Positions 5,333 through 62,308 of a stretch of DNA of 64,000 nucleotides are shown piece after piece. Below the pieces are notes generated by a model that did not search any database, was not told where the DNA came from, and worked only from the letters and a program-made list of their open reading frames with translations. Location: assembly GCF_003634315.1 (NCBI RefSeq), contig NZ_RBXL01000001.1, positions 4,940,501 to 5,004,500 on the forward strand. The letters are read 5' to 3'. The DNA is from Thiocapsa rosea. GTDB lineage: Bacteria; Pseudomonadota; Gammaproteobacteria; Chromatiales; Chromatiaceae. How positions within the stretch are numbered: the stretch's first letter is position 1; each line of letters begins with the position of its first letter. Made by a program: the position numbers and the translations under genes.

Positions 5333-5418
5333 CTAAACCGCGTTCGGAGCGACCCAAGTCGCTTCGTCCTTTGTCTCGACCTCGTCTTACCTAACAACCT
5401 CGGCGCAACGCGGTTTAG
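5333..5418. repeat. CGCG-terminus element, unit 1 (86 bp)
   Basis: Perfect 12-bp inverted termini CTAAACCGCGTT / AACGCGGTTTAG. This is the first of four units packed between convergent genes (DUF2892 and rimO). The interior contains a small hairpin, AGCGAC/GTCGCT. A loose half-copy of the left terminus (CTGAACCGCGTCC) lies just before it at about 5315. Confidence 0.8.
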
Positions 5419-5442
5419 GAAAATTTAAAATTTATTAATGAC

Positions 5443-5636
5443 TTAAACCGCGTCCAGAGCGACATGCGTCATTTTCATTTTGCATTTAGCTTCGGAGATG
5501 TCCTCGATCTCGGTGAGACGCGGTTTAAAATTTGATATGTTTAATATTTTAAACCGCGCCGGCTCCAGCGGTTGTGAAATCCGCCGAGGCCGATCCCATC
5601 CAAAAACGTCGCATACCGCACTGGGCGCGGTTTAAA
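5443..5636. repeat. Composite CGCG-terminus element: unit B, AT-rich linker, unit A
   Basis: Unit B spans 5443-5528 (86 bp, arms TTAAACCGCGTC/GACGCGGTTTAA). It contains the family-B interior beginning CCAGAGCGACATGCGTCA. An AT-rich linker of about 19 bp follows. Unit A spans 5548-5636 (89 bp, arms TTTAAACCGCGCC/GGCGCGGTTTAAA) with the interior GCATACCGC near its right end. The same B-linker-A order recurs at 27620 and 56937, and in inverse orientation at 10921, 16633 and 21538. Confidence 0.8.
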
Positions 5637-5717
5637 TCGCGTCGGCGCCGGCCTCGCATGGATGTGAGGGTCCCGCCCAACGCTCCGAGTTCATAGATCG
5701 CAAGGGACGCGATTTAA
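5632..5717. repeat. CGCG-terminus element with AAATCGCG variant arms
   Basis: 86 bp with perfect arms TTAAATCGCGTC / GACGCGATTTAA. The C-to-T change in the left arm is matched by G-to-A in the right arm. It shares 5 bp with the previous unit. The rimO stop codon (TAA, minus strand, 5714-5716) lies inside the right arm. Confidence 0.8.
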
Positions 5718-7039
5718 TCGGCGATCGGCTGCGCCCACAGATCATGGTCGCCCGCATCCATAACCTCGACCTCGATGAAATCTCCGGGATCCAGCTCCCA
5801 GGCACCGGCGATGATCACCTCGCCGTCGATCTCGGGTGCGTCGGCGTAGCTGCGGGCGATCACCTCGTCCTCACCGACCTCGTCGACCAGCACCGTCATG
5901 CGCTGACCGATGCGCCCGGCGAGCTTCGCGCGGCTGATCTCGGACTGCACGGCCATGAAGCGCTCGACCCGCTCGTGCTTGACCTGCTCCGGGACAGGAT
6001 CGGGCAGCGCGTTCGCGCTCGCACCCTCGACCGGCGAATAGGGAAAACAGCCGACGCGGTCCAATTGGGCTGCGCGCAGGAAGTCGAGCAGCGCCTCGAA
6101 CTCGGTCTCGGTCTCGCCCGGAAATCCGACGATGAAGGTGCTGCGCATGACCAGCTCCGGGCACTGCTCGCGCCAGCGCGTGAGCCGATCGAGCACCTTC
6201 TCGGTCGCCGCGGGACGACGCATCGCCCGCAGGATAGGCTCGCTGCCGTGCTGCAGCGGCATGTCGAGATAAGGCAGGATCAGCCCCTCCGCCATCAGCG
6301 GGATCAGCTCGTCGACATGCGGATAGGGATAGACATAGTGCAGCCGGACCCAGGCCGGCAGCTCGCCGAGTGCGCGTGCGAGATTCACCGTATCCGTCTT
6401 GAGCGGGCGACCCTTCCAGAAATCGGGACGGTAGCGCAGATCCAGCCCGTAGGCGCTGGTGTCCTGCGAGATGATCAAGAGCTCGCGCACGCCCGACTCC
6501 ACCAGCCGCTCCGCCTCCGCGAGCACCTCGCCGATCGGGCGGCTCGCCAGATCGCCGCGTAGACTCGGGATGATGCAGAAGCTGCACCGATGATTGCATC
6601 CCTCCGAGATCTTGAGATAGGCAAAGTGCCGCGGCGTGAGCTTCACGCCCTGCGGCGGTACCAGACTGACGAAGGGATCATGCGGCGCCGGAAGCTGCGC
6701 ATGCACGGCCGCCATCACCTCGTCGAGTGCATGCGGACCCGTCACCGCAAGAACCTCGGGATGGGCCTTGCGAACGATCTCTGCACGCGCACCTAGGCAG
6801 CCGGTCACGATGACGCGACCGTTGGCGTGCATCGCCTCGCCGATCGCATCGAGCGACTCCTCGACCGCGTCGTCGATAAAGCCGCAGGTGTTGACGATGA
6901 CCAGATCGGCATCCTCGTAGCTCGGCGGGATGCCGTAGCCCTCGGCACGCAACTGCGTGAGGATCCGCTCCGAATCCACGGTCGCCTTGGGACAGCCGAG
7001 GCTGATGAATCCGACCTTGGGGGCTTGCGTCATCGACAT
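5714..7039 (-). CDS. rimO: Ribosomal protein S12 methylthiotransferase RimO
   Basis: A radical-SAM enzyme that adds a methylthio group to the conserved aspartate of ribosomal protein S12. The 441-aa product has the N-terminal MiaB/RimO domain with three cluster cysteines ([28 protein letters not shown]). The radical-SAM motif CNHRCSFC follows near residue 148, and a C-terminal TRAM region comes last. [12 protein letters not shown] identifies RimO rather than MiaB. Two in-frame ATGs lie at the start (7039 and 7033) and neither has a clear Shine-Dalgarno. The stop codon falls in a repeat arm. Confidence 0.95.
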
Positions 7040-7083
7040 AGGGTCAACCGGGATCTACAACATTCAAAGAAAGCCGACACGCG

Positions 7084-7863
7084 TCAAGGGTGCCCGAACT
7101 GGATGACGGCGAAGATGGCGCCCTGCGGGTCGCCGAGGAAGGCGAATCGGCCGACATTCTCGACCTCCATCGGGTCCATCACGATGCTGCCGCCCAGACG
7201 CTTGGTCGTGGCGACGACGCTGTCGCAGTCTTCGACGCCGAAATAGATCGACCAGTTCGGCGGCATCGAGCCCCAAGACGCATCGAGCTCGATCATTCCG
7301 CCGACCTCCTTGCCGTCGAGCTCGAACAGCGTGTAACGCCCGTCCATCAGGCTCGCGCTGGTGCGTGCGCTCCAGCCGAAGAGGTCTTGGTAGAAGCGTG
7401 CCGCGGCCTTGGTGTTGCGGGTCTGCAGCTCGCTCCAACTGCGCGCGCCGTAAGTGTTGTCGAGCTCCGCACCGAACAGTGAGCCCGGCTCCCAAAGTCC
7501 GAGCACGGCGCCGGTGGGATCCTGAATGAAGGCCATGCGTCCGAGCTGCATCACATCGACCGCAGGCATCACCAGACGTCCGCCCAGCTCGACGGCCTGC
7601 TCGACACTCGCCTGAACGTCCATCACCCGGACATAGCTCGCCCAGTAGGGGAAGGCGCCTTGTTCGGGCGCCATCTCGTAGAGCGCGGCGGCGCGCTTGC
7701 CGTCGCGCTCGAGGATGCTGTAAGGCACCTCGTAATCGGTCGCGAGGTCCTCGGAGGTCCAGCCGAAGATCTCTCCGTAGAAGGTCTTTGCGGCCTCGGG
7801 CGCATTGGTCGCCAGATCGACCCAGCAGAAGGTCCCGGCTGGGTAGCTTGTCATCTCCGCCAT
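7084..7863 (-). CDS. VOC (glyoxalase-fold) protein with two tandem domains
   Basis: A 259-aa cytosolic protein with two VOC-like halves. The first starts at FCWVDLATN and the second around ELQTRNTKAAARFYQDLFGW. This architecture is annotated as glyoxalase/bleomycin-resistance-like or hydroxylase-like, but substrate is unpredictable. The chosen ATG has AGGA about 8 nt upstream. A second ATG (MTSYPAG) lies three codons later. It sits between rimO and a membrane protein, all on the minus strand. Confidence 0.75.
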   Translation of the reverse strand: MAEMTSYPAGTFCWVDLATNAPEAAKTFYGEIFGWTSEDLATDYEVPYSILERDGKRAAALYEMAPEQGAFPYWASYVRVMDVQASVEQAVELGGRLVMPAVDVMQLGRMAFIQDPTGAVLGLWEPGSLFGAELDNTYGARSWSELQTRNTKAAARFYQDLFGWSARTSASLMDGRYTLFELDGKEVGGMIELDASWGSMPPNWSIYFGVEDCDSVVATTKRLGGSIVMDPMEVENVGRFAFLGDPQGAIFAVIQFGHP

Positions 7864-7920
7864 GGGGCGTTCCTCGGTTCGGATCCTTGATTCGGATCCT
7901 TCAGGTTGAAAGCGATCGGC

Positions 7921-8532
7921 TCAATCGAGATCCGCATCGGCGCGCCGGCCTTTGCGACCCGTCAAACGGCGCGGCGGCGGGTCGCCGTCCATCATCATCA
8001 GCATGCGCTCCTCCTCGGCGAGACGCTTGGCCGCGAGATGCTTCTCCTGTCGCACCCGGGCTGTGTAGCCGAGCGCCGCACCTGCGGCCGTTGTCACGGT
8101 GAGCAGCCCCAAGGTGACGAACTGGGCCAGCATCATGGCCACTCCGAGACCCACCGCGCCGCCGACGACGACGCCGGTCTTGAGGTTGGCACCCATCGAG
8201 CCCCGATGCCGGACCTTGGCCTGAAGAACGGCGTTGTCGCGACCGACCTTGGCACGGATCTGCTCGGCCTTGACCCGGATCTTCTCGCGCTCCTTGGAGA
8301 AGCGCTCGCTCACGCGCGAGACGGTGCGATGGCGATCCGCTGCGACGATGGTGTTGAACCAGAATGCGACCAGCGTGCCGATCGAGCCACCCAACAGCAG
8401 GAAGAGCGGCCAGGTCGTTTGCCAATCGGTGCTCAAGGCCGTGTAGACCAGGAGTCCCGTGACACCCTGGAGTAGAAAGATCCCGATCAGGAAGCGGACC
8501 AAGCTGCCCAAACCGGTTGGAATAATATTCAT
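7921..8532 (-). CDS. Hypothetical membrane protein with central coiled coil
   Basis: 203 aa. Two hydrophobic segments lie within residues 10-60. A charged, probably helical stretch follows (about 65-110, rich in R/K/E). Two further hydrophobic segments lie at about 113-155, and the cytosolic tail is basic. I do not recognise the family. The gene is clearly coding, with consistent codon bias and a hydrophobic pattern. It precedes a lipoprotein gene on the same strand. Confidence 0.6.
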   Translation of the reverse strand: MNIIPTGLGSLVRFLIGIFLLQGVTGLLVYTALSTDWQTTWPLFLLLGGSIGTLVAFWFNTIVAADRHRTVSRVSERFSKEREKIRVKAEQIRAKVGRDNAVLQAKVRHRGSMGANLKTGVVVGGAVGLGVAMMLAQFVTLGLLTVTTAAGAALGYTARVRQEKHLAAKRLAEEERMLMMMDGDPPPRRLTGRKGRRADADLD

Positions 8533-8565
8533 AGTCTAAGTCTGCACTCCCTGGCGTCGAGCGAG

Positions 8566-10322: not shown

Positions 10323-10925
10323 ATGTATCCGATCGATAAACCCTACTCGGAAGCCTGCGAAGAAAACAAGCAACCGATTCTCGACGTGATCGGCCCGCTC
10401 TTTCAAGAGGTCCGACATCTGCTCGAGATCGGGAGCGGCACCGGTCAGCACGCGGTCTTCTTCGCCGCCGCCCTACCCCATCTCGTGTGGCAAACCAGCG
10501 ACTGCGCCCACTATCTCCCCGGGATCCGGGCCTGGCTGGACGATGCCGACCTACCCAACCTGCCACCCACGCGCGTGCTCGACGTCACCGGCACCTGGCC
10601 CGACGAACGCTTCGACGGCGTGTTCAGTGCCAACACCGCCCACATCATGTCCGAGCCGGAGGTCGAGGCCATGTTCGACGGAGTCGGGCGCGTCTTGGTC
10701 GACGGCGGTTGTTTTGCGCTCTATGGCCCCTTCAACATCGGCGGTCGCTACACCAGCGAGAGCAACGCACGCTTCGACGCCATGCTGCGCTCGCGCGACC
10801 CCGCGATGGGCATCCGCGACCTCGACCGCTTGATCCGGATGGCCCGCGACAACGGCATGGAGTTGATCGCGGATCACCCGATGCCGGTCAACAACCGCAC
10901 TCTGGTCTGGCAGCGCATCCCTTAA
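10323..10925 (+). CDS. DUF938 SAM-dependent methyltransferase-like protein
   Basis: 200 aa with the class-I methyltransferase motif I EIGSGTGQHA at about residues 34-43, and the DUF938 pattern (N-terminal PYSEACEENKQPIL, later SANTAHIMS and LYGPFNIGGRYTS). DUF938 is widespread in proteobacteria and its substrate is unknown to me. The ATG at 10323 is within a longer open frame; homology begins here. The stop codon (TAA, 10923-10925) is supplied by the left arm of a repeat. Confidence 0.8.
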   Translation: MYPIDKPYSEACEENKQPILDVIGPLFQEVRHLLEIGSGTGQHAVFFAAALPHLVWQTSDCAHYLPGIRAWLDDADLPNLPPTRVLDVTGTWPDERFDGVFSANTAHIMSEPEVEAMFDGVGRVLVDGGCFALYGPFNIGGRYTSESNARFDAMLRSRDPAMGIRDLDRLIRMARDNGMELIADHPMPVNNRTLVWQRIP

Positions 10926-11105
10926 ACCGCGCCTGACGGGGTATGCGGTGCTTTTGGATTGGATCAGCCTCGGCAGATTCGGCGAGAGTCGGAGTCTGCT
11001 CGGCTTAAAGTATTGAATAATAAAAACTTCTAACAGCCTCTCCAGCGAGACCGAGGAAACCTTCAAATTCAAACACAGAATGAGAATGACGCGTTTCACT
11101 CTGTA
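10921..11105. repeat. Degenerate composite CGCG-terminus element (A then B)
   Basis: It opens with CTTAAACCGCGCC directly at the DUF938 stop and continues with a family-A interior (GTATGCGG). An AT-rich linker (TAAAGTATTGAATAATAA) follows. It ends with a worn family-B interior read in reverse (GAGAATGACGCGTTTCACTCT). The distal arms are poorly preserved. Confidence 0.6.
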
Positions 11106-11132
11106 TTTGTGAATCGTTCCTCAGGAGCATCT

Positions 11133-11816: not shown

Positions 11817-11902
11817 CTGAACCGCGTTCACGCCGAGAGGCTTGGTACGCTCGACAGACTGGGCTACCTTAGAGACCGATCGTCACTCTGAACGCGGTTC
11901 AG
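11817..11902. repeat. CGCG-terminus element with GAACCGCG variant arms
   Basis: 86 bp with perfect 13-bp arms CTGAACCGCGTTC / GAACGCGGTTCAG. The arm substitution (AAA to GAA) is matched at the other end. Unlike most units it lies upstream of a start: the right arm ends one nucleotide before the ybaK ATG, so the usual ribosome-binding region is repeat sequence. Confidence 0.8.
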
Positions 11903-16233: not shown

Positions 16234-16318
16234 ATAAAACGCGCCGCTCCAACCCCACAGAGATCCACAACGCCAACACCACCCACCAAGACCCCACATC
16301 CCCCCGAGCGCGTTTTAT
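16234..16318. repeat. CGCG-terminus element with AAAACGCG variant arms
   Basis: 85 bp, arms ATAAAACGCGC / GCGCGTTTTAT. The substitution is compensated across the arms. The interior is strikingly poor in G on the plus strand, unlike other units. The stop codon of the AsnC-domain gene (16315-16317) is inside the right arm. Confidence 0.7.
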
Positions 16319-16632: not shown

Positions 16633-16939
16633 CTTTAAACCGCGCCCGGTGCGGTATGCGTAAATGTGTTGGAATGGCTTGGCCGTGCCAGCCCCGACGA
16701 CTGTCGGAGCTGGCGCGATTTAAAGTATTAAAAAATATAAAATTATAAACCGCGTCCCCGCTAAGGGTCGTGGATGGTAGCTTCTCAATAAGTCGGGGCG
16801 AACTCGCGTGATCACTAGAGCAAATCAACAACTTGCGGAACCGCATCGGCTGTTTGCCACGGGTTATTGAGAAGTTACCGTGGATGGACCAAACGTCGAA
16901 CCCACTCGAAAGTGAGTATCTCGCTCTGGACGCGGTTTA
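16633..16939. repeat. Composite CGCG-terminus element (A plus B), interrupted by a small transposon-like insert
   Basis: Unit A spans 16633-16725 (arms CTTTAAACCGCGCC / GGCGCGATTTAAAG, one mismatch), followed by an AT-rich linker. Unit B spans 16746-16939 (arms TAAACCGCGTCC / GGACGCGGTTTA) and carries a 104-bp insert. Subtracting the insert and one copy of its 6-bp target duplication leaves 84 bp, the normal unit size. This explains most of the 427 bp between the AsnC-domain gene and rluB. Confidence 0.75.
16776..16879. mobile_element. 104-bp MITE-like element
   Basis: Terminal inverted repeats GGTAGCTTCTCAATAA (16776-16791) and TTATTGAGAAGTTACC (16864-16879) match at 15 of 16 positions. The element is flanked by an exact 6-bp direct repeat GTGGAT (16770-16775 and 16880-16885), as expected for a target-site duplication. 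There is no room for a transposase, so it would be mobilised in trans. The parent IS family is not identified. Confidence 0.8.
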
Positions 16940-19488: not shown

Positions 19489-19573
19489 CTAAACCGCGCC
19501 CCACCGACGCCGATCTGTGCTTCGAGGCCCGCAGCACCTCCAAGACAGCACCGAAACACCGGGCGCGGTTTAG
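19489..19573. repeat. CGCG-terminus element (85 bp)
   Basis: Perfect arms CTAAACCGCGCC / GGCGCGGTTTAG. It lies between scpA and trpS, both on the minus strand. The trpS stop codon (19570-19572) lies inside the right arm. Confidence 0.8.
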
Positions 19574-21537: not shown

Positions 21538-21731
21538 CTAGACCGCGCCCGGTGCGGTATGCGTCATTCGTTGGAATGGCTTGGCCGCGCCAGCTCCGAC
21601 GACTGTCGGAGCTGGCGCGGTGAAAAGGATTGAAAAATTTAAATTTTGAACCGCGTCTCGCCAAGATCGAGGAACCCCCCGACGCTGAACACAACGTGAA
21701 AATGACGCATTTCGCTCTAGACGCGGTTTAA
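21538..21731. repeat. Composite CGCG-terminus element (A, linker, B) with 16-bp hairpin
   Basis: Unit A starts CTAGACCGCGCC at 21538 and contains a perfect 16-bp stem CCGCGCCAGCTCCGAC (21585-21600), loop GACT, GTCGGAGCTGGCGCGG (21605-21620). After an AT-rich linker, unit B spans 21646-21731 with arms TTGAACCGCGTC / GACGCGGTTTAA (one G-T pair). It fills the gap between the M50 gene and yciO. Confidence 0.8.
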
Positions 21732-24202: not shown

Positions 24203-24288
24203 CTGAACCGCGTCGGCGGTCCATGCATCCTTTCGAGCAAACTCCCGGCGTAACGCATTCCAGCGCCGCCGGTGGAGACGCGGTTCAG
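24203..24288. repeat. CGCG-terminus element with GAACCGCG variant arms
   Basis: 86 bp with perfect 12-bp arms CTGAACCGCGTC / GACGCGGTTCAG. It is directly downstream of the hypothetical gene that ends at 24196. Confidence 0.8.
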
Positions 24289-24306
24289 AAAATATCTATT
24301 TCCTAC

Positions 24307-24383
24307 TTTCCTATTTCCTATTTCCTATTTCCTATTTCCTATTTCCTATTTCCTATTTCCTATTTCCTATTTCCTATTTCCTA
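24307..24383. repeat. Heptamer tandem array (TTTCCTA)x11
   Basis: Eleven perfect copies of the 7-bp unit TTTCCTA, preceded by one imperfect copy from 24299. It lies between two CGCG-terminus elements, downstream of both flanking convergent genes, so it does not sit in a promoter. Copy number is likely variable between strains. Confidence 0.9.
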
Positions 24384-24469
24384 AACCGCGTCCAGTGCCG
24401 ACTGTCGGGAACCCCTCCGACCTATCGCCACATGGCAACATCGCCGGACAACTCCGGGGCGCGGTTTAG
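24381..24469. repeat. CGCG-terminus element (89 bp)
   Basis: Arms CTAAACCGCG (24381-24390) and CGCGGTTTAG (24460-24469), with a G-T pair as the next step. The stop codon of the regulator gene (24466-24468) is inside the right arm. The left arm shares bases with the heptamer array. Confidence 0.75.
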
Positions 24470-27619: not shown

Positions 27620-27815
27620 CTAAACCGCGTCCAGAGCAATATGCGTCATTTTCACTTTGCGTTTGGCGTTGGAGATATCCTCGATCTCGGTGCGACGCGG
27701 TTTAAAATTTAATATTTTTCAATACCTTAAACCGCCCCGACTCCGACGGTCATCGGAGCCGGCGCGGTCAAGCTCATCCAACAAACGACGCATATCGCAC
27801 CGGGCGCGGTTTAAG
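27620..27815. repeat. Composite CGCG-terminus element (B, linker, A)
   Basis: Unit B spans 27620-27705 (arms TAAACCGCGTC/GACGCGGTTTA) with an interior close to that at 5443. An AT-rich linker follows. Unit A spans 27726-27815 and ends CGCGGTTTAAG. It lies between convergent genes; the hcp stop codon (27811-27813) is inside the last arm. Confidence 0.8.
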
Positions 27816-32723: not shown

Positions 32724-32800
32724 TGGTGGCTACGCCCTGACTCGAACAGGGGACCCTCGCATTATGAGTGCGATGCTCTAACCAACTGAGCTACGTAGCC
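32724..32800 (-). tRNA. tRNA-Met (elongator type, anticodon CAT)
   Basis: 77 nt including an encoded CCA end. The acceptor stem GGCTACG/CGTAGCC is perfect. The D-arm is GCTC...GAGC, the anticodon stem TCGCA/TGCGA around loop CTCATAA, and the T-stem CCCTG/CAGGG around TTCGAGT. The sequence resembles elongator tRNA-Met (acceptor and D-arm as in E. coli metT) rather than initiator tRNA or the lysidine-modified Ile tRNA. Confidence 0.95.
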
Positions 32801-33456: not shown

Positions 33457-34932
33457 ATGAAATCGCTTCGCAAAGACTGGCTGTCCAACATTCGCAACGA
33501 TCTGCTTGCCGGCTTGGTGGTGGCTCTGGCCCTGATCCCCGAGGCGATCGCCTTCTCCATCATCGCCGGGGTCGACCCCAAGGTGGGGCTCTACGCCTCC
33601 TTCGCGATCGCGACCATCACCGCCTTCGTCGGCGGCCGGCCGGGCATGATCTCGGGTGCCACCGCGGCGATGGCGCTCCTGATGGTGACCCTGGTCAAGG
33701 ACCACGGCCTGGAGTATCTGCTGGCCGCGACCATCCTGACCGGCATCCTGCAGATCATCGCCGGCACGCTGCGCTTGGGCAACCTGATGCGCTTCGTGTC
33801 GCGCTCGGTCATCACCGGCTTCGTCAACGCCCTGGCCATTCTCATCTTCATGGCGCAGCTGCCCGAGTTGATCGGGGTGACCTGGGAGGTCTATGCGATG
33901 GTCGCCGCCGGTCTGGCCATCATCTATCTCTTCCCCTATCTCACCAAGCTGATCCCCTCGCCGCTGGTCACCATCGTGGTGCTCACCGGGGCAGCCATCT
34001 TGTTGGATCTGGACATTCGCACCGTCGGCGATATGGGCGAGCTTCCCGACACCCTGCCGGTCTTCCTCTTCCCCGACATCCCGCTCAATTGGGAGACGCT
34101 GGCCATCATCTTCCCGATCTCCGCCACGCTGGCCGTGGTGGGTCTGCTGGAATCACTGATGACGGCCTCGATCGTCGATGATCTGACCGATTCGACCAGC
34201 AACAAGAACCGCGAGTGCGTGGGCCAAGGCGTGGCCAACATCGGTTCGGGTTTCCTCGGCGGCATGGCGGGCTGCGCGATGATCGGCCAAGCCGTCATCA
34301 ACATCAAATCAGGCGGGCGCGGGCGCCTTTCGACGCTCGCCGCCGGTGTCTTCCTGCTCTTGATGGTGGTGTTCGCCGGCGAGTGGGTGGCGATGATCCC
34401 CATGGCCGCGCTGGTGGCCGTCATGATCATGGTCTCGATCGGCACCTTCAACTGGGCCTCCGTTCGGAATCTGCGCGAGCATCCACTCGCCGCCAACGTG
34501 GTCATGCTCTCGACGGTGGTGGTCGTGGTCTTCACGCACGATCTGGCCATGGGGGTGCTGGTCGGCGTCCTGCTGTCCGGGTTCTTCTTCGCCAACAAGG
34601 TCGGACAGGTGCTGCATATCGGCTCGGTCTGCGTGAACGAAGGCCGGATGCGGGTCTACATGGTCACGGGCCAGGTGTTCTTCGCCTCGGCCGATCGTTT
34701 CATCGCCTCGTTCGACTACAAGGAAGTCATCGAAAGGGTCCGCATCGATGTCAGCCGCGCCCACTTCTGGGACATCACCGCAGTCAGCGCGCTCGATAAG
34801 GTGGTCATCAAGTTCCGTCGCGAGGGCACCGAGGTCGAGATCGCCGGGCTGAACCAGGCGAGCGCGACCCTGGTGGACCGCTTCGCGGTGCACGACAAAC
34901 CCGATGCCGTCGAGCAACTGATGGGGCACTAA
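33457..34932 (+). CDS. SulP-family inorganic anion transporter
   Basis: 491 aa. About eleven hydrophobic segments follow the SulP signature start ([28 protein letters not shown]), and a C-terminal STAS domain begins at about residue 385 ([19 protein letters not shown]). Members carry sulfate or bicarbonate. The adjacent universal stress protein gene is a pairing often seen with bicarbonate-type SulP proteins. Stop codon TAA (34930-34932) lies in the left arm of a repeat. Confidence 0.9.
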
Positions 34933-35015
34933 ATCGCGTCCGGAGCGATCGGCATCGTTTTTGGCTTGAATCGGCCTCGGCCAGATCCTTGAACGCCGGA
35001 TCTGACGCGATTTAG
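34929..35015. repeat. CGCG-terminus element with AAATCGCG variant arms
   Basis: 87 bp, perfect arms CTAAATCGCGTC / GACGCGATTTAG. It lies between the SulP gene, whose stop codon it supplies, and the universal stress protein gene. It is the last unit before a 21-kb stretch without any. Confidence 0.8.
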
Positions 35016-52148: not shown

Positions 52149-53333
52149 ATGACAACAGTCAACGTGCATCGTCCCGACCGCCAGCCTTCGCGAGCACTCG
52201 GTCCGACCACCCGCCTCGCCATTCACGCAGACGCCTGCATCCCCGCGCGGTTCCCGGAGATGTCTTGCCGACGGTGCGCGGATGCTTGTCCAACCGGCGC
52301 GCTGGTCGCGACGTCGGAAGGACCGGAGTTGGCCTCGGGCTGCGTGGACTGCGGGCGCTGCGTGGTGGCGTGTCCGACCGAGGCGCTGTCCGTGCCCGGA
52401 TTCGAGATCACGCCGACGACGAGCGGGATGATCGCGATGGATTGCTGGCGCGTCCCGGCGAAAGACTCGCCGAGCGGTGCCGTGCGGGTTCCATGTCTCG
52501 GCGGACTCTCCACGACCAGACTCGCCGAGCTGACGGCCGAGGCCGACGAACGCCCCGTCGCGCTGCTCGATCGCGGCTTCTGCGCCCGATGTCCGGCCGG
52601 GGTGCGCGAGCATCCCGACACCCACCCCGCCGCGCTCGTCATCGACGAGGTCCGCCGACTGCTCGACGACTGCGGTGTGGCCCCGACCGATGGGCCGCGC
52701 CTGATCGCGATGCCGCTGCCCGCCGCCCGCATGGTCGAGGGCATAGGCGAGCCGCTGCTGGAGTCTCGGATCAGCCGACGCGCGCTCTTCACCGGCCAGG
52801 CGCTTCGGACAAGCCAACCGGCGCCGGCGCCGCGCGCCACTCCGCCGGCCCAAACCGCGGGCCTCGGCCGTCAACGCCTGCTCGCCGCCCTGCAACGCCT
52901 CTCGGCAGCCGAGCGCCCCCTGCCCGCACGGCTCTTCCCGAGCCTGACGGCAAACCACAACTGCGCCGACCACCGCGTCTGCGCCAGCGCCTGCCCCACC
53001 GGCGCGCTCACGGCCTACACCGAGGACGCTGCGCGAGGTCTCCGTTTCGATGCCGCCGCCTGCATCGCCTGCGATCTCTGCACCCGACTCTGCCCGGAGC
53101 AGGCACTGACGCTCGACGGCTCGGACGAGACGACGACCGAGCGGACACCGCAACGCCTGACCCGACACGCCACGCAGACTTGCCCGGAGTGCGGTGCGGA
53201 GCACAGCAACCCCGAACCCGTCTGCCCGGCATGCCGACGCGATCGAGACTTCGCCCGCAGTGCCTTTTTAGCGTTCAGCCGCCGGCCCCCGGCCTCCAGC
53301 CTCCAGCCCGACGCAGGGGAAGCTGAAAGCTGA
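52149..53333 (+). CDS. arxB2: Polyferredoxin-type 4Fe-4S protein (ArxB2/ArxB'-like)
   Basis: 394 aa with at least four ferredoxin-like cysteine blocks: CRRCADACPTGAL, CVDCGRCVVACPTEAL, DHRVCASACPTGAL and CIACDLCTRLCPEQAL. A C-terminal zinc-ribbon-like pair follows (CPECGAEHSN ... VCPACRRD). No signal peptide, so likely cytosolic. Arx loci begin with a 4Fe-4S gene ahead of arxA, which fits. The last codons (about AGEAES) are encoded by the start of a heptamer repeat array, suggesting the tail is recent. Confidence 0.85.
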   Translation: MTTVNVHRPDRQPSRALGPTTRLAIHADACIPARFPEMSCRRCADACPTGALVATSEGPELASGCVDCGRCVVACPTEALSVPGFEITPTTSGMIAMDCWRVPAKDSPSGAVRVPCLGGLSTTRLAELTAEADERPVALLDRGFCARCPAGVREHPDTHPAALVIDEVRRLLDDCGVAPTDGPRLIAMPLPAARMVEGIGEPLLESRISRRALFTGQALRTSQPAPAPRATPPAQTAGLGRQRLLAALQRLSAAERPLPARLFPSLTANHNCADHRVCASACPTGALTAYTEDAARGLRFDAAACIACDLCTRLCPEQALTLDGSDETTTERTPQRLTRHATQTCPECGAEHSNPEPVCPACRRDRDFARSAFLAFSRRPPASSLQPDAGEAES

Positions 53334-53369
53334 AAGCTGAGAGCTGAAAGCTGAGAGCTGAAAGCTGAG
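53321..53369. repeat. Heptamer tandem array (AGCTGAR)x7
   Basis: Seven consecutive 7-bp units AGCTGAA/AGCTGAG. It begins inside the last codons of arxB2 and supplies its TGA stop (53331-53333). Part of the intergenic space before arxA. Confidence 0.9.
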
Positions 53370-53383
53370 AGCTTACCGCTGGC

Positions 53384-53432
53384 GGCAGGAGGCAGGAGGC
53401 AGGAGGCAGGAGGCTGGAGGCTGGAGCCTGGC
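53384..53432. repeat. Heptamer tandem array (GGCAGGA / GGCTGGA)
   Basis: Four units GGCAGGA, two units GGCTGGA and one degenerate unit in register, directly after the AGCTGAR array and 45 bp before the arxA start. A short CCTCCAG heptamer pair precedes both arrays near 53293-53306. Confidence 0.85.
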
Positions 53433-53476
53433 AGCTCAACAATCCCATCCAACAACAACACCGGAGGAGACCACCG

Positions 53477-55960: not shown

Positions 55961-55966
55961 GCCGTA

Positions 55967-56052
55967 TTGAGCCGCGCCTGAGCGCAACCGCAGCGTTTGA
56001 GAGTCGAGCACTGTTCGGCGGATATCAAAGACCTCTGCCGGGCGCGGCTCAA
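55967..56052. repeat. CGCG-terminus element with GAGCCGCG variant arms
   Basis: 86 bp, perfect 12-bp arms TTGAGCCGCGCC / GGCGCGGCTCAA. Together with the next unit it fills the arxA-arxB gap. Both arms changed from AAACC to GAGCC. Confidence 0.8.
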
Positions 56053-56072
56053 GAATTTTTAAAAGAAAACAC

Positions 56073-56158
56073 TTGAATCGCGTCGCGCCGACGCCTCGGA
56101 GTGCATGCGAGACCGACCAAAATCTCGATGCTTTCCCGTCGCACCGAACGCGATTCAA
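56073..56158. repeat. CGCG-terminus element with GAATCGCG variant arms
   Basis: 86 bp, arms TTGAATCGCGT / ACGCGATTCAA (11 bp perfect). Located just upstream of arxB, 17 bp before its start codon. Confidence 0.8.
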
Positions 56159-56175
56159 CACATGAGGAATCAGTC

Positions 56176-56940
56176 ATGGCGAAATGGGGAATGGTCATCG
56201 ATCTGGACACGTGCACCGGCTGCCAAGCCTGCACGACGGCCTGTGCGATGGAGAACAACCGCCTGCCCGGCGAGAACTGGCAGGACGTGCTTTTCTATCA
56301 CGAGGGCACCTATCCGAACGTGAAGCTGATGTGGTTCCCGCGGCCCTGCATGCATTGCGAGAACCCTTCATGCGTGTCGGTCTGTCCGACCAAGGCGACC
56401 TACAAGGACCCGGACGGCGGCTTCGTGCTGATGGACTACAACAAGTGCATCGGCTGCAAATACTGTCAGGTCGCCTGCCCGTACGGCGTGCGTTTCTATG
56501 TCGACGAGAAGGCGGTGGTGCAGCCGGATATCCGCGGGGTCTTCCCGAGCGAGGCGGGCCGCCAGTGGGATCCGCCCTACAAGGGTCCGCAGGACGATCC
56601 CTCGCGCGGGATCGGCATCCAGCCGCACGGCGTCGTCTCCAAGTGCACCTTCTGCTACCACAAGGTCAGCAAGGCGCCGAAGGGCGTGGCCGATCTGGAC
56701 GAGGACATCCCGGAACTCAAGGAGTACGTGCCGGCCTGCGTGCGGGTGTGCGCCCCGAAGGCCCGGTTCTTCGGCGATCTGGACCAGCCCAACAGCAACG
56801 TCAACAAGATGATCGCGGACAAGCGCGGCGTGCGCCTGAAGGACGAGACCGGCAACAAGCCGCAGGTCTATTACCTCTCGGGCGGAGCAACGGCCTCGGT
56901 GCCGTCGTTGCGCAGCATGAGCGATTCGGACAAGGCCTAA
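56176..56940 (+). CDS. arxB: 4Fe-4S electron-transfer subunit ArxB
   Basis: 254 aa of the NrfC/PsrB/DmsB type, with four ferredoxin clusters: CTGCQACTTACAMEN, MHCENPSCVSVCP, CIGCKYCQVACPYG, and a late SKCTFCYHKV plus ACVRVCAP pair. It would carry electrons between ArxA and the membrane subunit. No own signal; such subunits ride with the Tat-exported partner. GAGGA lies before the ATG. The stop TAA (56938-56940) is inside a repeat arm. Confidence 0.92.
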   Translation: MAKWGMVIDLDTCTGCQACTTACAMENNRLPGENWQDVLFYHEGTYPNVKLMWFPRPCMHCENPSCVSVCPTKATYKDPDGGFVLMDYNKCIGCKYCQVACPYGVRFYVDEKAVVQPDIRGVFPSEAGRQWDPPYKGPQDDPSRGIGIQPHGVVSKCTFCYHKVSKAPKGVADLDEDIPELKEYVPACVRVCAPKARFFGDLDQPNSNVNKMIADKRGVRLKDETGNKPQVYYLSGGATASVPSLRSMSDSDKA

Positions 56941-57132
56941 ACCGCGTCCAGAGCGACATGCGTCATTTTCACGTTGTGTCGGGATTAGGGATTTTTCCGA
57001 ACTTCGTGGAGACGCGGTTTAGAATTTTAAATTTTTTAGAACCTTAAACCGCGCCGGCTCCGACAATCGTCGAGTCTGCCGAGGCCGATCCCATCTAAAA
57101 AACGTCAAATACCGCGCCGGGCGCGGTTTAAG
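56937..57132. repeat. Composite CGCG-terminus element (B, linker, A)
   Basis: Unit B spans 56937-57022 (arms CTAAACCGCGTC/GACGCGGTTTAG), followed by an AT-rich linker. Unit A spans 57043-57132 (arms CTTAAACCGCGCC/GGCGCGGTTTAAG). It lies between arxB and arxC, within one presumed operon, so it cannot be a strong terminator there without polar effects. Confidence 0.8.
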
Positions 57133-57146
57133 GGGAGGAGATCACC

Positions 57147-58301: not shown

Positions 58302-58399
58302 TTCGGGGTGGTCGGGCTCGGTGCGGGGGTCGAGACCATCGCGCATCCGGCCGACCCGACCTCGGTGGCCGACTGCCATGTCGCTGTCCGATGACGCTT

Positions 58400-58435
58400 C
58401 GCTCATCCGACCTGCGACGCTCATCCGACCTACGA
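58400..58435. repeat. Direct repeat of 18 bp between arxC and arxD
   Basis: CGCTCATCCGACCTRCGA occurs twice in tandem (58400-58417, 58418-58435; R is G then A). Not coding. Confidence 0.6.
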
Positions 58436-58463
58436 CGGGACGACGCCACAACACACCGACTCT

Positions 58464-58489
58464 CGCGACACCGCTCCGGCGGTGTCGCG
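58464..58489 (+). other. Stable hairpin between arxC and arxD
   Basis: CGCGACACCGC, loop TCCG, GCGGTGTCGCG: a perfect 11-bp stem closed by a UNCG-type tetraloop in RNA. There is no T-run, so it is more likely an mRNA-stability or processing element than an intrinsic terminator. Confidence 0.5.
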
Positions 58490-58542
58490 CATCTCCCGGC
58501 GCTCCGCGCCACGGACAACGACAAGGTTTTCGAGGTTGAGCG

Positions 58543-59409
58543 ATGACGACCGATACGCTGCTTGTGAGCAAATCCGAGCTTTTCCTCTGTCTGGCGCGGG
58601 CCTTCGCGATTCCGAGCGGCCCGGATGCCTTATCTCTGCTTCGCGATGCCCTGCCGGAGGATCTGGCCGAGCTTGCGGCGGACTGCAGCTACGACATCGG
58701 CGAAGCCCTGGCCGATTACCGCACGGCCGTGACCGAGATCCCCGACGGGGATCGTCTGCTGGTCATCTACTCACGGCTCTTTCTGGTGCCGGGCGACCGG
58801 CACCCGAGCCTGAACACGGGCGCCTATCTCGACGGCACGGTCGCCGGCGGCAGCGTCACGGCGATGGAGACCTGCTATCGGCGTTGCGGTCTGGGGAAGG
58901 ACGCGGCCGTCCAGGATCTGCCGGATCATCTCGCGATCCAACTGGAGTTCGTCGCCCGTCTGCTCGCCGCCGAGTCGCAGGCGAGCATCACCGGCACGAG
59001 CCCTCCGCCGATCACGGCCGGAGACTTTCTCGCGACCTTCGTCGCCCGCTGGATCGGCCCCTTCCGTGCCGATCTCGAAGAAGCGGGTCGTCGCTTCAAG
59101 CTGGGCGACAACCCCTATCGGCATCTTGCGCGGATCCTGGAGAGCGCCGTTCGGAGCGAGTTTGCGCTGAATCCGATCGAGGCCGCGCCCGCGCCTGCGG
59201 TCGATCCCGAGATCGCGCGTCTGCGCAGCCAGCTCTCCGGCAAACCCATCACCGAGGAGGATCTGGCCATCATCCGGGCACGTCTGGCGGCCGACGGTCT
59301 GCCCAGCGATCATGTCGCGATCCCGCTCGACGACCGCGACCGCATCATGGGGCTCTCGACCATGGTGCCGCCGGCAGCGCCGTCGCATCGGATGGCGTCG
59401 CTTGGTTGA
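58543..59409 (+). CDS. arxD: TorD-family molybdoenzyme chaperone ArxD
   Basis: 288 aa, all-helical, of the TorD/DmsD chaperone family. It has the pattern LLVIYSRLFLVPGDRHPSLN and TGAYLDGTVAGGSVTAMETC around residues 60-110, then the QLEFVARLLAAE helix. It would bind the ArxA Tat leader and aid cofactor insertion. The C-terminal region (about 225-288) is an extension with a charged helix. AGG lies 9 nt before the ATG. Confidence 0.88.
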   Translation: MTTDTLLVSKSELFLCLARAFAIPSGPDALSLLRDALPEDLAELAADCSYDIGEALADYRTAVTEIPDGDRLLVIYSRLFLVPGDRHPSLNTGAYLDGTVAGGSVTAMETCYRRCGLGKDAAVQDLPDHLAIQLEFVARLLAAESQASITGTSPPPITAGDFLATFVARWIGPFRADLEEAGRRFKLGDNPYRHLARILESAVRSEFALNPIEAAPAPAVDPEIARLRSQLSGKPITEEDLAIIRARLAADGLPSDHVAIPLDDRDRIMGLSTMVPPAAPSHRMASLG

Positions 59410-59451
59410 GCGCCGAAGAGCACGGATCCCCATCGAGCGCGCGTCGGGATC

Positions 59452-59922
59452 ATGTGGTCGCGGATGCTGCCGATGATCCTCGTCGCGTGCCTGACCAGCA
59501 CCGGGCTGCGCGCCGAGCTGTCCGGCGAGGACGATCTCGGCGGTGGTCGCGTCGATTCAAAGCGACCGACCGGATCCCAGGCAAGCCTCGCGCATGAGAC
59601 CGTTCTATCGAGATCGCCAAACGGAGCGACAGGTGCCATGATCCCGATGAAGCCCACCGCTGTCGCGTTCGTCCTGACCTGGAGTCTGATTCCGCTGCTT
59701 GCGGACAGTGAATCGACGAGCCCCGGTGTGCTCGACACCGAGACCGCGACCCGAGATCAACCGAATCGGGGTCGCGATGATCCCGCTCCCGGTCTCGGGC
59801 AGGCGGAATCCGCAAACGGCAACGGTCAAGCGCCGGAGCCGGAATCGGAGTCGGCGGATCCGTCCCGATCGGACCAGCGCCGAGGCGAAACCCCTTCGCT
59901 CGGACTGTGCGACGGAAGCTGA
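59452..59922 (+). CDS. Small possible secreted protein, uncertain
   Basis: 156 aa open frame between arxD and moaA. The N-terminus MWSRMLPMILVACLTSTGL looks like a signal or lipoprotein leader. A second hydrophobic start (MIPMKPTAVAFVLTWSLIPLL) begins at 59638. The rest is low-complexity, rich in E, S, R and P. Either start could be used, or the frame is not coding. Confidence 0.3.
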   Translation: MWSRMLPMILVACLTSTGLRAELSGEDDLGGGRVDSKRPTGSQASLAHETVLSRSPNGATGAMIPMKPTAVAFVLTWSLIPLLADSESTSPGVLDTETATRDQPNRGRDDPAPGLGQAESANGNGQAPEPESESADPSRSDQRRGETPSLGLCDGS

Positions 59923-59978
59923 GCCGCCGTTGCCATTGATCGGTGACCGTCGGCAACCTGATTCCAGCTCGACATGTC

Positions 59979-60057
59979 TCTCAGGCAGACGCGGAGGACA
60001 CGGAGAATCCGAGACCTTTCCTGCGTATGCTCCGTGTCCTCCGCGTCTCCGTGAGAG
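59979..60057. repeat. Large inverted repeat upstream of moaA
   Basis: GACGCGGAGGACACGGAG (59988-60005) and CTCCGTGTCCTCCGCGTC (60030-60047) are perfect 18-bp complements. Outer CTCTCA and TGAGAG also pair. A MITE-like hairpin of a widespread GC-rich type; it lies 28 bp before the moaA start. Confidence 0.6.
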
Positions 60058-60084
60058 ATTTTGAAACTGATAGGTGCTACCCGC

Positions 60085-61071
60085 ATGAACGCTCAAACCC
60101 TCACAGACCCCTTCGGCCGACACATCGCATACCTGCGCCTGTCCGTCACCGACCGCTGCGACCTGCGCTGCGGCTACTGTCTGCCGAAAGGCTTCAAGGG
60201 GTTCGAGGAGCCCGAGCATTGGCTCACCTTCGACGAGATCTACCGCGTCGTCGGCGCCTTCACCGCCTTGGGGGTGAGCCGTGTGCGCATCACCGGCGGA
60301 GAGCCGCTGGTGCGACGCAACCTGCCCGAGCTGGCCGCCGGGCTATCGGCGCTGCCCGGCCTCGATGATCTCTCCATCTCCAGCAACTGCACCCGCATGG
60401 AGTCGCTCGCCGAGCCGCTCTATCGTGCCGGCGTGCGCCGGCTCAATGTCAGCCTCGACAGCCTGCGCCCCGAAGTCTTCAAGCAGGTGACCGGGGGTGA
60501 TCTCGACAAGGTGCTGCGCGGCATCGCGGCGGCACGCGCGGTCGGCTTCGTCCCGATTCGCGTCAATACCGTCGTCATGCGCGGGGTGAACGACGAAGAG
60601 ATCGAAGACATCCTCGGCTACTGCGCGGACAACGGCTTCACGCTGCGCCTGATCGAGACCATGCCGATGGGCGCGACCGGTCAAGCCGCGCGGGATCAGT
60701 ATCTCGATCTCCAGACGGTGCGGCGCCGCTTGGAGCGGCGTTTCACGCTGATCCCGGACATCCTGCCCGGCGGCGGCCCGGCGCGCTACTTCCGGCTCGG
60801 CGCGACCGACACCCGAATCGGCTTCATCACACCGATCTCGCAGCATTTTTGCGAAACCTGCAATCGGGTACGGTTTACGGTCGACGGCACCCTCTATCTG
60901 TGTCTCGGCCAGGAGAGCAGCTACGCGCTGCGACCGCTCCTGCGCGACGGGATCAGTGACGACGCCTTGCTCGACCACCTGAAACAGGCCATCGCCCTGA
61001 AACCCGAGCGTCACGAATTCAACGAGCGCCCGGAGAAGGTCATCCGATTCATGTCGATGACAGGCGGATGA
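60085..61071 (+). CDS. moaA: GTP 3',8-cyclase MoaA
   Basis: 328 aa radical-SAM enzyme of molybdenum cofactor synthesis. N-terminal CDLRCGYC is the SAM cluster (C-x3-C-x2-C), with CETCNRVR and the final LYLCLG holding the second cluster. The glycine pair is absent in this form; MTGG at the C-terminus is typical. It supplies Moco precursor to ArxA. ATG 60085 is chosen; ATG 60061 is the alternative. Confidence 0.93.
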   Translation: MNAQTLTDPFGRHIAYLRLSVTDRCDLRCGYCLPKGFKGFEEPEHWLTFDEIYRVVGAFTALGVSRVRITGGEPLVRRNLPELAAGLSALPGLDDLSISSNCTRMESLAEPLYRAGVRRLNVSLDSLRPEVFKQVTGGDLDKVLRGIAAARAVGFVPIRVNTVVMRGVNDEEIEDILGYCADNGFTLRLIETMPMGATGQAARDQYLDLQTVRRRLERRFTLIPDILPGGGPARYFRLGATDTRIGFITPISQHFCETCNRVRFTVDGTLYLCLGQESSYALRPLLRDGISDDALLDHLKQAIALKPERHEFNERPEKVIRFMSMTGG

Positions 61072-61260
61072 AGCCCGGGCGAGCCCCTGACCTGCCCCGC
61101 CATCGTCTCGACAACACCGAAAACCAAGACTTCAACACCTTCACCGTCGGTCTGAATGCAACGTTCGGGTATTGACCGATCCCCTACCCTGGTCGGCGCA
61201 CGGGATGTGCCCGGCCTGCAGCACCACCAACCACTCAACACGCCATCAGAGGAGACCTTC

Positions 61261-62208
61261 ATGTCGCACAGGCTTTATCGAGCACTTCTGCCGATCGGGT
61301 TCGCCGCGCTGCTTGCGTTGATGTTCGCGCCCATCCAGGCGCTCGCCAATCCGGATTTCCTGGTCGATGCCGACTGGCTGACGGACGCGATGGACGACGA
61401 GAACACGATCGTCCTCGAGGTGCGTTATCACCCCCATCGTTACTTCACCGTGGGCCACATCCCCGGCGCGATCCAAGTGCAGCGCTTCAAAGATCTCGGC
61501 GACAACGACGCCAGCCCGATCATGCGCTTTCCCTCTCGCGAGACCTTCCAGAACACGCTGCGCGGTTGGGGCGTGAACGACGACTCGACACTCGTGATCT
61601 ATGACGATTCCAGCACGGCGCTGGCGGCGCGACTCTATTTCCTGCTCGACCTCTACGGCTTCGACATGGACGGGGTGAAGATCCTCAACGGCGGGACGAT
61701 CGAGTGGACCGGCCTCAACGAGTTGGAGAAGGAGCCCACGCCGCCGAGAGCGCCCGGCACGGTGACCCTGAAGGACGCCGACCCGGCGCTCTTCGCCGAA
61801 TGGGCCGGCGTCTACGACGATGTCGTCTCGCGGCGCGACCCGTCCGTGGTTCTGATTGATGCGCGTCCGAACGACATGTACACCGGCGAGGTGATCCGAC
61901 ACTCGATCATGGGCGGGCACATTCCGGGGGCCATCAATGTCGTAAGTCTCGACGGAGTAGACGGTCAAACCGGCAAATGGCGGAGCGACGAGAGCATCGC
62001 CGCACTCTATGCAGCGATCCCCAAAGACAAGCGGATCTACGTTTACTGCCACGACGGCTTCCGGATGGGCCTGGCCTATCTGCAGCTCAAGCATCTTGGC
62101 TACGAGGACGTGCGGCTCTACAACGGCGGCTGGTCGCACTGGGGCAACGAGCTGACCCTGCCGGTCGTGGAAGGACCCGAGCCTTACAGCGGCGACTTTG
62201 ACCTGTAA
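61261..62208 (+). CDS. Periplasmic two-domain rhodanese (sulfurtransferase)
   Basis: 315 aa with a signal peptide (ALLPIGFAALLALMFAP, then ALA|NP). The first rhodanese domain lacks its catalytic cysteine (VIYDDSSTALAAR) and is structural. The second has the active loop YCHDGFRMG. It would transfer sulfane sulfur in the periplasm, where arsenite, thiosulfate or thioarsenate may be donors or acceptors. GAGGAG precedes the ATG. It is the next gene after moaA; a repeat follows. Confidence 0.88.
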   Translation: MSHRLYRALLPIGFAALLALMFAPIQALANPDFLVDADWLTDAMDDENTIVLEVRYHPHRYFTVGHIPGAIQVQRFKDLGDNDASPIMRFPSRETFQNTLRGWGVNDDSTLVIYDDSSTALAARLYFLLDLYGFDMDGVKILNGGTIEWTGLNELEKEPTPPRAPGTVTLKDADPALFAEWAGVYDDVVSRRDPSVVLIDARPNDMYTGEVIRHSIMGGHIPGAINVVSLDGVDGQTGKWRSDESIAALYAAIPKDKRIYVYCHDGFRMGLAYLQLKHLGYEDVRLYNGGWSHWGNELTLPVVEGPEPYSGDFDL

Positions 62209-62220
62209 TTCCGACAGATC

Positions 62221-62308
62221 TTAAACCGCGCCGGCTCCAGCGATCGTCGCGTCTGCCGAGACCGATCCCATCCAAAAACATCGCATACCTGCGCTGGGCG
62301 CGGTTTAG
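62221..62308. repeat. CGCG-terminus element, solo unit A (88 bp)
   Basis: Arms TAAACCGCGCC / GGCGCGGTTTA. Interior CCGGCTCCAGCGATCG and CGCATACC are shared with the units at 5548 and 57043. Confidence 0.8.

What the first reader, a model, noticed from the sequence alone, without database searches (positions are those of the whole stretch)
5333..62308. Intergenic elements of constant length with co-varying inverted termini
About 24 units are closed by 11-13 bp inverted arms. Well-preserved units are 85-90 bp long, most of them 86. The arms change together: TAAACCGCG/CGCGGTTTA (majority), TAAATCGCG/CGCGATTTA (5632, 34929), TGAACCGCG/CGCGGTTCA (11817, 24203), TGAGCCGCG/CGCGGCTCA (55967), TGAATCGCG/CGCGATTCA (56073), TAAAACGCG/CGCGTTTTA (16234). 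The interiors are often unrelated. Fixed length with changing sequence and compensated ends implies selection or a mechanism that keeps the ends complementary (RNA pairing, cruciform, or end-recognition by a recombinase). I do not recognise it as a described family.
Basis: seen in the sequence. Interest (0 to 1): 0.9.

Follow-up and report, generated by a model that had tools for sequence, protein, structure and literature searches.

The report
Stop-codon hairpin mini-transposons in Thiocapsa
Hundreds of short, gene-less DNA pieces that move into TA sites are spread through a purple sulfur bacterium, very often exactly on a gene's stop codon which they restore, and old copies still keep their two ends complementary, as if the resulting hairpins had become useful.

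Summary
The own genome (genus Thiocapsa, Chromatiaceae) holds 767 arm pairs, 0 for the reversed pattern. Units are 84-86 bp, or 86-88 with one flanking base pair.

They are modules of a MITE-like element. The recent mobile unit is about 190-194 bp: two self-complementary modules around a ~23-bp AT-rich spacer. It inserts at Y-TA-R and leaves TA on both sides, shown by filled/empty comparisons at five loci. Its end begins with A, so insertion into TAA or TAG restores a TAA stop. 72 of 1028 called genes end exactly on a unit.

Covariation is real and not simple copying. It is kept within modules, not between the mobile unit's termini (position 9: 89% vs 26%). In old units even the base just outside pairs (0.90, expected 0.46); in young units it does not (0.59, 0.54). 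Arm positions off the commonest pair are mostly unpaired in young units (6 paired, 86 unpaired), mostly paired in old ones (43, 19).

Function is inferred: 3'-end hairpins. Mismatch types do not separate RNA from DNA-level constraint. No matching transposase was found.

The parts
5334..5417 (.). old unit TAAACCGCGTT/AACGCGGTTTA, first half of an old pair
   Evidence: present in G117, and as TGAACC/GGTTCA in G105
5444..5634 (.). young two-module mobile unit (5444-5527 and 5550-5634) nested in the TA of the older unit's end; G117 and G105 lack it
5633..5716 (.). old unit TAAATCGCG/CGCGATTTA; right end is the TAA stop of the gene on the - strand
10923..11007 (.). decayed unit starting at the TAA stop of the + gene; empty in G117, G105, G079; a single unit in G125, a pair in G075
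11818..11901 (.). old unit TGAACCGCGTT/AACGCGGTTCA
16235..16317 (.). old unit TAAAACGCG/CGCGTTTTA; outside pair A-T here, T-A in G079; right end is a stop codon
16636..16722 (.). young unit, one right-arm mismatch (GGCGCGATTTA); first half of a pair
16746..16939 (.). second half of that pair, interrupted by a 103-bp palindromic insert (16777-16879)
19490..19572 (.). old unit, right end is the TAA stop of the - gene; in five relatives at 0.69-0.73 identity with 1-3 arm changes, in a sixth (G112, 0.64) with altered arms
21539..21730 (.). young two-module unit (21539-21624 with damaged arms, 21647-21730), absent in the ten relatives compared
24204..24287 (.). old unit TGAACC/GGTTCA; TGAGCC/GGCTCA at the same locus in G148
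24382..24468 (.). partner of 24204 across a TTTCCTA tandem repeat; right end is a stop codon
27621..27813 (.). young two-module mobile unit (27621-27704 and 27728-27813); 31-bp outer inverted repeats; right end is a stop codon
32906..33053 (.). rearranged young unit with outer ends 148 bp apart
34930..35014 (.). old unit TAAATCGCG/CGCGATTTA starting on the TAA stop of the + gene
55968..56157 (.). old pair TGAGCC/GGCTCA (55968-56051) and TGAATC/GATTCA (56074-56157); in G117 the first starts on the TGA stop, here a small tandem duplication seems to have shifted it
56938..57130 (.). young two-module mobile unit on the TAA stop of the + gene; G117 has the empty site TAAGGGGAGG
62222..62307 (.). 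single young-type unit; G117 lacks it

Best explanation
A family of non-autonomous transposable elements (MITE-like) of Chromatiaceae. SHOWN: the recent mobile unit is about 190-194 bp, made of two modules of 84-86 bp around a ~23-bp AT-rich spacer; each module is closed by its own 11-bp complementary arms (TRAACCGCGYC / GRCGCGGTTYA). It goes into Y-TA-R and leaves TA on both sides. Its termini begin with A, so insertion into the TA of a TAA or TAG stop codon gives a TAA again and spares the gene. Recent units sit on stop codons about four times as often as the supply of YTAR targets predicts. Arms change more slowly than interiors. SHOWN AS A CONTRAST BETWEEN AGE CLASSES, with seven in-place double changes at orthologous loci: long-retained modules are re-paired at mutated positions and pair the base just outside. 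INFERRED: single modules arise by deletion between like-oriented arm copies; an IS630/Tc1-like enzyme made the insertions; retained modules act as hairpins at gene 3' ends (mRNA 3'-end protection, or help in ending transcription or translation), which selects for pairing.
For: Copies and spacing: outer ends 190-194 bp apart in 90 of 103; spacer 23 bp in 73 of 140 gaps. Filled/empty sites at five loci. YTAR: 98% Y and 98% R, 78 pairs. Stop codons: 72 of 1028 genes; gene ends inside a unit have offset 3 in 68 cases, another offset in 4; own young arrays 45 of 94 on a stop against 134 of 1164 YTAR targets. Convergent junctions: 48 of 181 arrays against 111 of 701 intergenic regions, p 0.0015. Within-module pairing. 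Age contrast. Arms vs interior: 6.3% vs 17.6% between orthologs; 23/611 vs 120/1414 polarised; 3.0% vs 11.5% in copies chosen by interior alone. Folding: old units z about -2.6, their interiors alone about -0.1.
Against: No transposase with matching ends was found. Between orthologs most arm changes are uncompensated: 90 changes of pairing state against 9 double changes, 7 distinct. Mismatches on the transcribed strand show no G-U excess over A-C (55 vs 45, p 0.37), so an RNA role is not shown. Within the young subfamilies the outside pair does not improve with interior divergence (0.60, 0.61, 0.57), so the step from young to old is abrupt. Units in clusters of 2-8 have 5 mixed pairs at position 1 among 77. 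One young subfamily also folds in its interior (z -2.13). No expression data; gene calls are my own crude ones.
Confidence: 0.7

Rival explanations
1. Pairing is kept by mutation, not selection: polymerase template switching between the arms copies one arm onto the other and makes them match.
For: Template switching is proposed to create and maintain hairpins (PMC8794818, passages read). Arms lie close together and double changes occur in place.
Against: It should not slow arm change below interior change, yet arms are slower. Complementarity does not spread: it is at or below chance at -2 and at 11-15 in old units.
Confidence: 0.25
2. Covariation is inherited: old TGAACC units descend from an earlier subfamily whose master already had these ends, so copying explains the match.
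For: TGAAC arms are concentrated in old units (26 of 62 singletons). Within young subfamilies there is no trend of the outside pair with divergence.
Against: The paired base just outside is host DNA for single units and is C-G 28 or T-A 27 among 62 singletons. Singletons have 31 G-C, 30 A-T and one A-G at position 1, though clusters of 2-8 have 5 mixed of 77. Double changes occur in place at orthologous loci.
Confidence: 0.15
3. DNA-level role: the arms are a cruciform or the two half-sites of a protein bridging about 74 bp, roughly seven helical turns; spacing and core sequence are kept for that.
For: Arm positions 2, 3 and 6-8 hardly change even in old units (the detection favours this). Lengths of 62 old singletons lie at 80-87 inside a detection range of 78-91. 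No strand bias of mismatches.
Against: The gap rate inside units is only slightly below that of other intergenic DNA (0.20 vs 0.24 per substitution). Excess at convergent junctions and on stop codons fits transcript ends at least as well.
Confidence: 0.25
4. Single-strand transposition of IS200/IS605 or RAYT type, with the modules as recognition hairpins and TA belonging to one element end rather than being a duplication.
For: Every module is a hairpin; filled and empty sites cannot tell a TA duplication from a terminal TA. Nine Y1_Tnp hits in the genome, one with a unit in its fetched stretch and two more with single arm sequences.
Against: Outer ends are 31-bp inverted repeats, the target is palindromic YTAR, and in the fetched stretches of about 3.3 kb no Y1 gene has units on both sides.
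Confidence: 0.12

Closest known systems
IS630/Tc1-mariner-type MITEs; ISY100 as the studied bacterial element (PMC2170065, passages read)
   Same: TA target duplicated on insertion; short inverted ends; many non-coding copies. IS630's preference for CTAG is taken from a reference title in that paper.
   Different: No such transposase with these ends found. Two self-complementary modules per mobile unit; pairing kept within modules rather than between termini; stop codon restored.
Coxiella QMITE1/QMITE2 (PMC5896051, passages read)
   Same: Bacterial MITEs; functional annotated genes affected have the insertion at the 3' end, some overlapping by 1-10 bp.
   Different: Direct repeats seen for QMITE2 in the passages are 7-9 bp, copy numbers 45 and 78 in one strain; no common stop-codon register and no arm covariation in the passages I saw.
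REP/BIME elements with RAYT (PMC2817692: start of abstract in a search listing; PMC3733652 and PMC12306157: passages)
   Same: Abundant intergenic palindromes, often as regularly spaced pairs; some lie close behind stop codons, where they are reported to affect translation.
   Different: REPs are 20-40 bp with short loops and a GTAG or CGTC tag; these modules are 84-86 bp with a 62-bp interior, and TA is left on both sides of the unit.
Enterobacterial RU-1 repeats of 127 bp, which I recall as ERIC (PMC2759123: start of abstract in a search listing)
   Same: Small mobile intergenic repeats likened to MITEs.
   Different: Not compared by sequence here; double-hairpin build and arm covariation are not mentioned in what I saw.

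Membership tests
MITE (general) | short element in many copies, no transposase gene | tested here: met
   190-194 bp unit, 767 arm pairs genome-wide; too short for a transposase gene
MITE (general) | terminal inverted repeats | tested here: met
   31-bp outer arms, 84% complementary at 27621-27813; outer ends 190-194 bp apart in 90 of 103
MITE (general) | target duplication against empty sites | tested here: met
   five loci with TA on both sides; other element-like gaps were not clean (e.g. segment B 268668)
MITE (general) | autonomous partner with the same ends | tested here: inconclusive
   examined: 7 of 7 IS630-type places own genome, 30 of 69 in 15 relatives, 9 of 9 Y1_Tnp, 4 of 21 DDE_Tnp_1: none flanked by these ends. 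Two transposases between outer ends (ISL3 and IS1595 type) are ISs inserted into units, with ends of their own
IS630/Tc1-mariner | TA target and duplication | tested here: met
   a TA that belongs to one element end cannot be told apart
IS630/Tc1-mariner | DDE_3 transposase acting on these ends | tested here: not met
   none of the 37 PF13358 loci examined has the ends on both sides; L314 of G148 has two arm sequences, both of left type
REP/BIME | 20-40 bp palindrome, short loop, unpaired GTAG or CGTC tag | tested here: not met
   84-86 bp, 62-bp interior; CGTC occurs only inside the paired arm and is CGCC in many units
Rfam families | match above gathering score | tested here: not met
   only a tRNA at 32727-32800 in the window
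integron attC sites | arrays beside an integrase, RYYYAAC/GTTRRRY cores | not tested
   core consensus recalled; listed units are spread along the chromosome and the base before AAC is a purine

The most novel reading that the evidence does not exclude
A transposon lineage whose working part is a hairpin that begins one base before the stop codon: it spreads by insertions that rebuild the stop codon, and ancient copies are kept and re-paired in place while their interiors diverge beyond recognition, extending the stem into host DNA. The genome thus builds many of its mRNA 3' ends from one MITE family.
Probability: 0.4. Interest if true: 0.8.

Novelty: new variant of a known kind. Interest (0 to 1): 0.62.

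Why it matters
It gives hundreds of natural insertions of one hairpin at gene 3' ends, with empty sites in sister species. That makes a standing question directly testable: do transposon hairpins become useful 3'-end structures, and do compensatory changes arise by selection or by template switching? The paired base outside the element is an unusually clean test. Restoring the stop codon on insertion is a simple way for a mobile element to spare its host.

Tried and rejected
Rfam: only a tRNA above gathering score. At E up to 5 there are 8 matches including that tRNA; one sub-threshold hit (mir-6644) overlaps unit 21539 and I take it as chance. Phages: the exact arm pattern has 0 matches in viral contigs. 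Autonomous partner: searched among IS630-type, Y1_Tnp and 4 of 21 DDE_Tnp_1 places and by orphan outer ends up to 5 kb apart. In six of these long spans I looked at the gene products: four hold genes that look by eye like ordinary host genes, one an ISL3-type and one an IS1595-type transposase. Both are ISs inserted into units: the IS1595-type has its own ends and an 8-bp repeat TATTTTTT in the spacer. The span in G105 of about 5 kb was not examined. RNA or DNA: G-U versus A-C on the transcribed strand does not decide (81 vs 65, 55 vs 45 with a stricter set). Length constraint: gap rate test weak. Diverged arms: units with other cores are few (2, 5, 2, 1, 3, 2, 0 at spans 82-88 against a mean of 1.14 per span); the larger 'far' class there is largely the same units read in a shifted register. 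Rows dropped: one search kept 64 of 166 unit comparisons (10 dropped for arm gaps, the rest absent or too different); one search left 92 of 373 arrays unclassed (19 of them on a stop codon); one search skipped 33 of 285 copies out of register. Literature (open-licence papers only): searches returned no paper; one search returned two papers that I did not read; one search listed ten papers, none of which holds the word Thiocapsa. So absence from print is weakly tested.
Full report
OBSERVATION. The window is a stretch of the main contig of a 6.11-Mb genome; named records with the same repeat are mostly Thiocapsa, with Thiobaca trueperi and other Chromatiaceae. In the window 9 exact majority-arm pairs occur, 0 in 100 shuffles. 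In 1.264 Mb of this genome, any perfectly complementary NNNNNCGCG arms peak at spans 84, 85 and 86 (58, 52 and 31 pairs); spans 83 and 87 have 6 each and all others 0-3. Among 195 genomes sampled from the order (own genome included, all of one family), 37 have a match and 15 of 56 genera; counts of 1-5 are hardly above what the reversed control gives in some genomes (1-3). Eight of 11 genomes of the genus carry 227-767 copies while three carry 0-1, and eight genomes outside the genus have 30-305. The patchy spread already speaks for a mobile element.

THE MOBILE UNIT. Units come singly or in pairs (240 singles, 127 pairs, 6 longer among 373 arrays in all fetched sequence; the spacer is 23 bp in 73 of 140 gaps). 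The outer ends of recent pairs are about 31-bp inverted repeats and lie 190-194 bp apart in 90 of 103 cases. I compared gene junctions with ten same-genus genomes and with 1.2 Mb of two of them. The alignments gave 43 long one-sided gaps with good flanks; I read those of 70-300 bp. Five loci show a clean pair against an empty site: window 56938-57130 (empty in G117), the junction at window 7033 (filled in G105, empty in the window), and positions 123461 (filled in G117, empty in own), 218908 and 226842 (filled in own) of segment B, which is own-genome C1:2000001-2400000. In each the empty site has one TA where the filled site has TA on both sides. Other element-like gaps were not clean, for example 268668. 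The pair at 5444-5634 sits in the TA at the end of an older unit. At three places one genome has a pair and the other a single module with the break inside like-oriented arm copies (segment A 101595, B 200109, B 360924), read as loss of a module. Target flanks of 78 young pairs are 98% Y before and 98% R after TA.

STOP CODONS. With a crude gene caller, 72 of 1028 genes end exactly on a unit so that its first three bases, TAA (60) or TGA (12), are the stop codon; the next commonest offset has 7. Of gene ends that fall inside a unit, 68 have this register and 4 another. Of young arrays in the own genome 45 of 94 sit on a stop, while stop codons make up 134 of 1164 free intergenic-plus-stop YTAR targets. 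Across all fetched sequence it is 75 of 176 arrays with a unit of the four subfamilies and 57 of 105 others; 92 weak arrays were left out. Because the unit begins with A after the TA, a TAA target stays TAA, and a TAG target becomes TAA (segment B 218908). Whether the excess is target choice or survival of harmless insertions is not settled. Units are also in excess between convergent genes: 48 of 181 arrays against 111 of 701 intergenic regions of 40 bp or more (p 0.0015).

COVARIATION. Among 164 strict units, position 1 is A-T in 127, G-C in 32 and mixed in 5; position 9 is T-A in 80 and C-G in 69, 0.91 paired in all. The later search let both bases pass freely at these positions. In 131 pairs position 9 is complementary within modules in 0.893, between outer ends of the mobile unit in 0.26, and between inner ends in 0.28. 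The kept pairing is that of the module, not of the transposon termini.

AGE. I clustered 400 units by interior: four large subfamilies (261 units, 'young'), 62 singletons ('old') and 77 between. Orthology agrees: of own-genome units in comparable junctions, 26 of 29 units from clusters of 1-3 are shared with a relative, and of 53 young-class units 17 are shared and 27 absent. At arm positions 0-8, states other than the commonest pair are paired in 6 and unpaired in 86 for young units, 43 and 19 for old units; 30 of the 43 are the A-T / G-C split at position 1, and without position 1 it is 3 and 68 against 13 and 18. Detection costs a double change more than a single one away from positions 1 and 9, so the bias runs against this. 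The base pair just outside the unit is complementary in 0.90 of old singletons (expected from composition 0.46) and 0.59 of young units (expected 0.54); position -2 is at chance or below in old units. In pairs one of these two bases belongs to the spacer; for single units both are host DNA, and there it is 0.93 of 60 old (expected 0.53) and 0.58 of 77 young (expected 0.48, old meaning clusters of 1-3). Among the 62 singletons the states are C-G 28, T-A 27 and 7 others.

AGAINST. In copies found by interior alone (285, of which 33 out of register were left out) this outside pair does not improve with interior divergence up to and above 0.15. In 69 ortholog comparisons of 47 units, 9 double changes (7 distinct, about 1.8 expected) stand beside 90 changes between paired and unpaired. 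Clusters of 2-8 units have 5 mixed pairs at position 1 among 77. So re-pairing is slow, and the old set is a retained minority.

CONSTRAINT. Between orthologs arms differ at 89 of 1408 sites and interiors at 693 of 3941 (64 of 166 unit comparisons kept); units were chosen by their arms in one genome, which lowers the arm figure. Two checks lessen this: changes polarised by other relatives, 23 of 611 arm sites against 120 of 1414 interior sites (sites not independent), and copies chosen by interior alone, 3.0% against 11.5% (252 copies). The second includes changes made before insertion. Examples in place: position 24204 has TGAACC/GGTTCA here and TGAGCC/GGCTCA in G148; segment A 294352 has G-C here and A-T in G117; at 16235 the outside pair is A-T here and T-A in G079.

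FUNCTION. Whole old units fold better than shuffles (z about -2.6) and their interiors alone do not (about -0.1); of the young subfamilies one also folds in its interior (z -2.13), three do not (20 units each). So in old units the arms are the structure. A hairpin that starts at the stop codon, enriched between convergent genes, points to mRNA 3' ends; REPs within 15 nt of a stop are reported to stall ribosomes (PMC12306157, passages). This is inference. On the transcribed strand G-U mismatches do not exceed A-C ones (55 vs 45, p 0.37), so DNA-level constraint or arm homogenisation by template switching (PMC8794818, passages) remain open, the latter less likely because arms change more slowly than interiors and the stem ends stay sharp.

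KNOWN KIND. TA target, TA on both sides, terminal inverted repeats and copy number make it MITE-like; insertion by an IS630/Tc1-type enzyme is the simplest reading (PMC2170065, passages), but no gene with these ends was found. Two transposases lying between outer ends turned out to be ISL3- and IS1595-type ISs inserted into units. I therefore do not file it as an IS630 MITE. MITEs at gene 3' ends are known from Coxiella (PMC5896051, passages). New, as far as limited literature searches show (searches found no paper; 65 and 80 nothing that I read), are the family itself, its two self-complementary modules, the restored stop codon, and pairing that is rebuilt after insertion.

Noticed in passing
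window 16777-16879: A 103-bp palindromic insert with ~28-bp inverted ends sits inside a module and is flanked by a 7-bp direct repeat GTGGATG (16770-16776, 16880-16886): a second, unrelated small mobile element.
   Followed up: partly
window 24288-24381: The spacer of an old pair has grown into a TTTCCTA-type tandem repeat here, shorter in G117 and other relatives: a length-variable microsatellite between two hairpins.
   Followed up: no
window 53273-53440; own genome near C1:236618 and 239403: GGCTGGAGGCTGGAG / CCAGCCTCCAGC repeats occur at several intergenic places and differ in length between species.
   Followed up: no
window 59977-60058: 35-bp inverted arms (89% complementary, 12-bp gap), unlike the present family.
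   Followed up: no
junction after window 1419, in G117 and G105: A 113-bp insert present in two relatives and absent in the window, possibly another small mobile repeat.
   Followed up: no
own genome C1 about 2149424-2150724: An IS1595-type IS (ends GGTGATTAGCGTCG / CGACGCTAATCACC) is inserted in the AT-rich spacer of a pair with an 8-bp repeat TATTTTTT.
   Followed up: yes
own genome C1 about 2367281-2368975 (L089): An ISL3-type IS (PF01610) with inverted ends GCTCTCCCGG / CCGGGAGAGC sits inside a module.
   Followed up: partly
genomes G112, G144, G152: Three same-genus genomes have 0-1 copies while eight have 227 or more; comparing their gene content could point to the missing transposase.
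   Followed up: no
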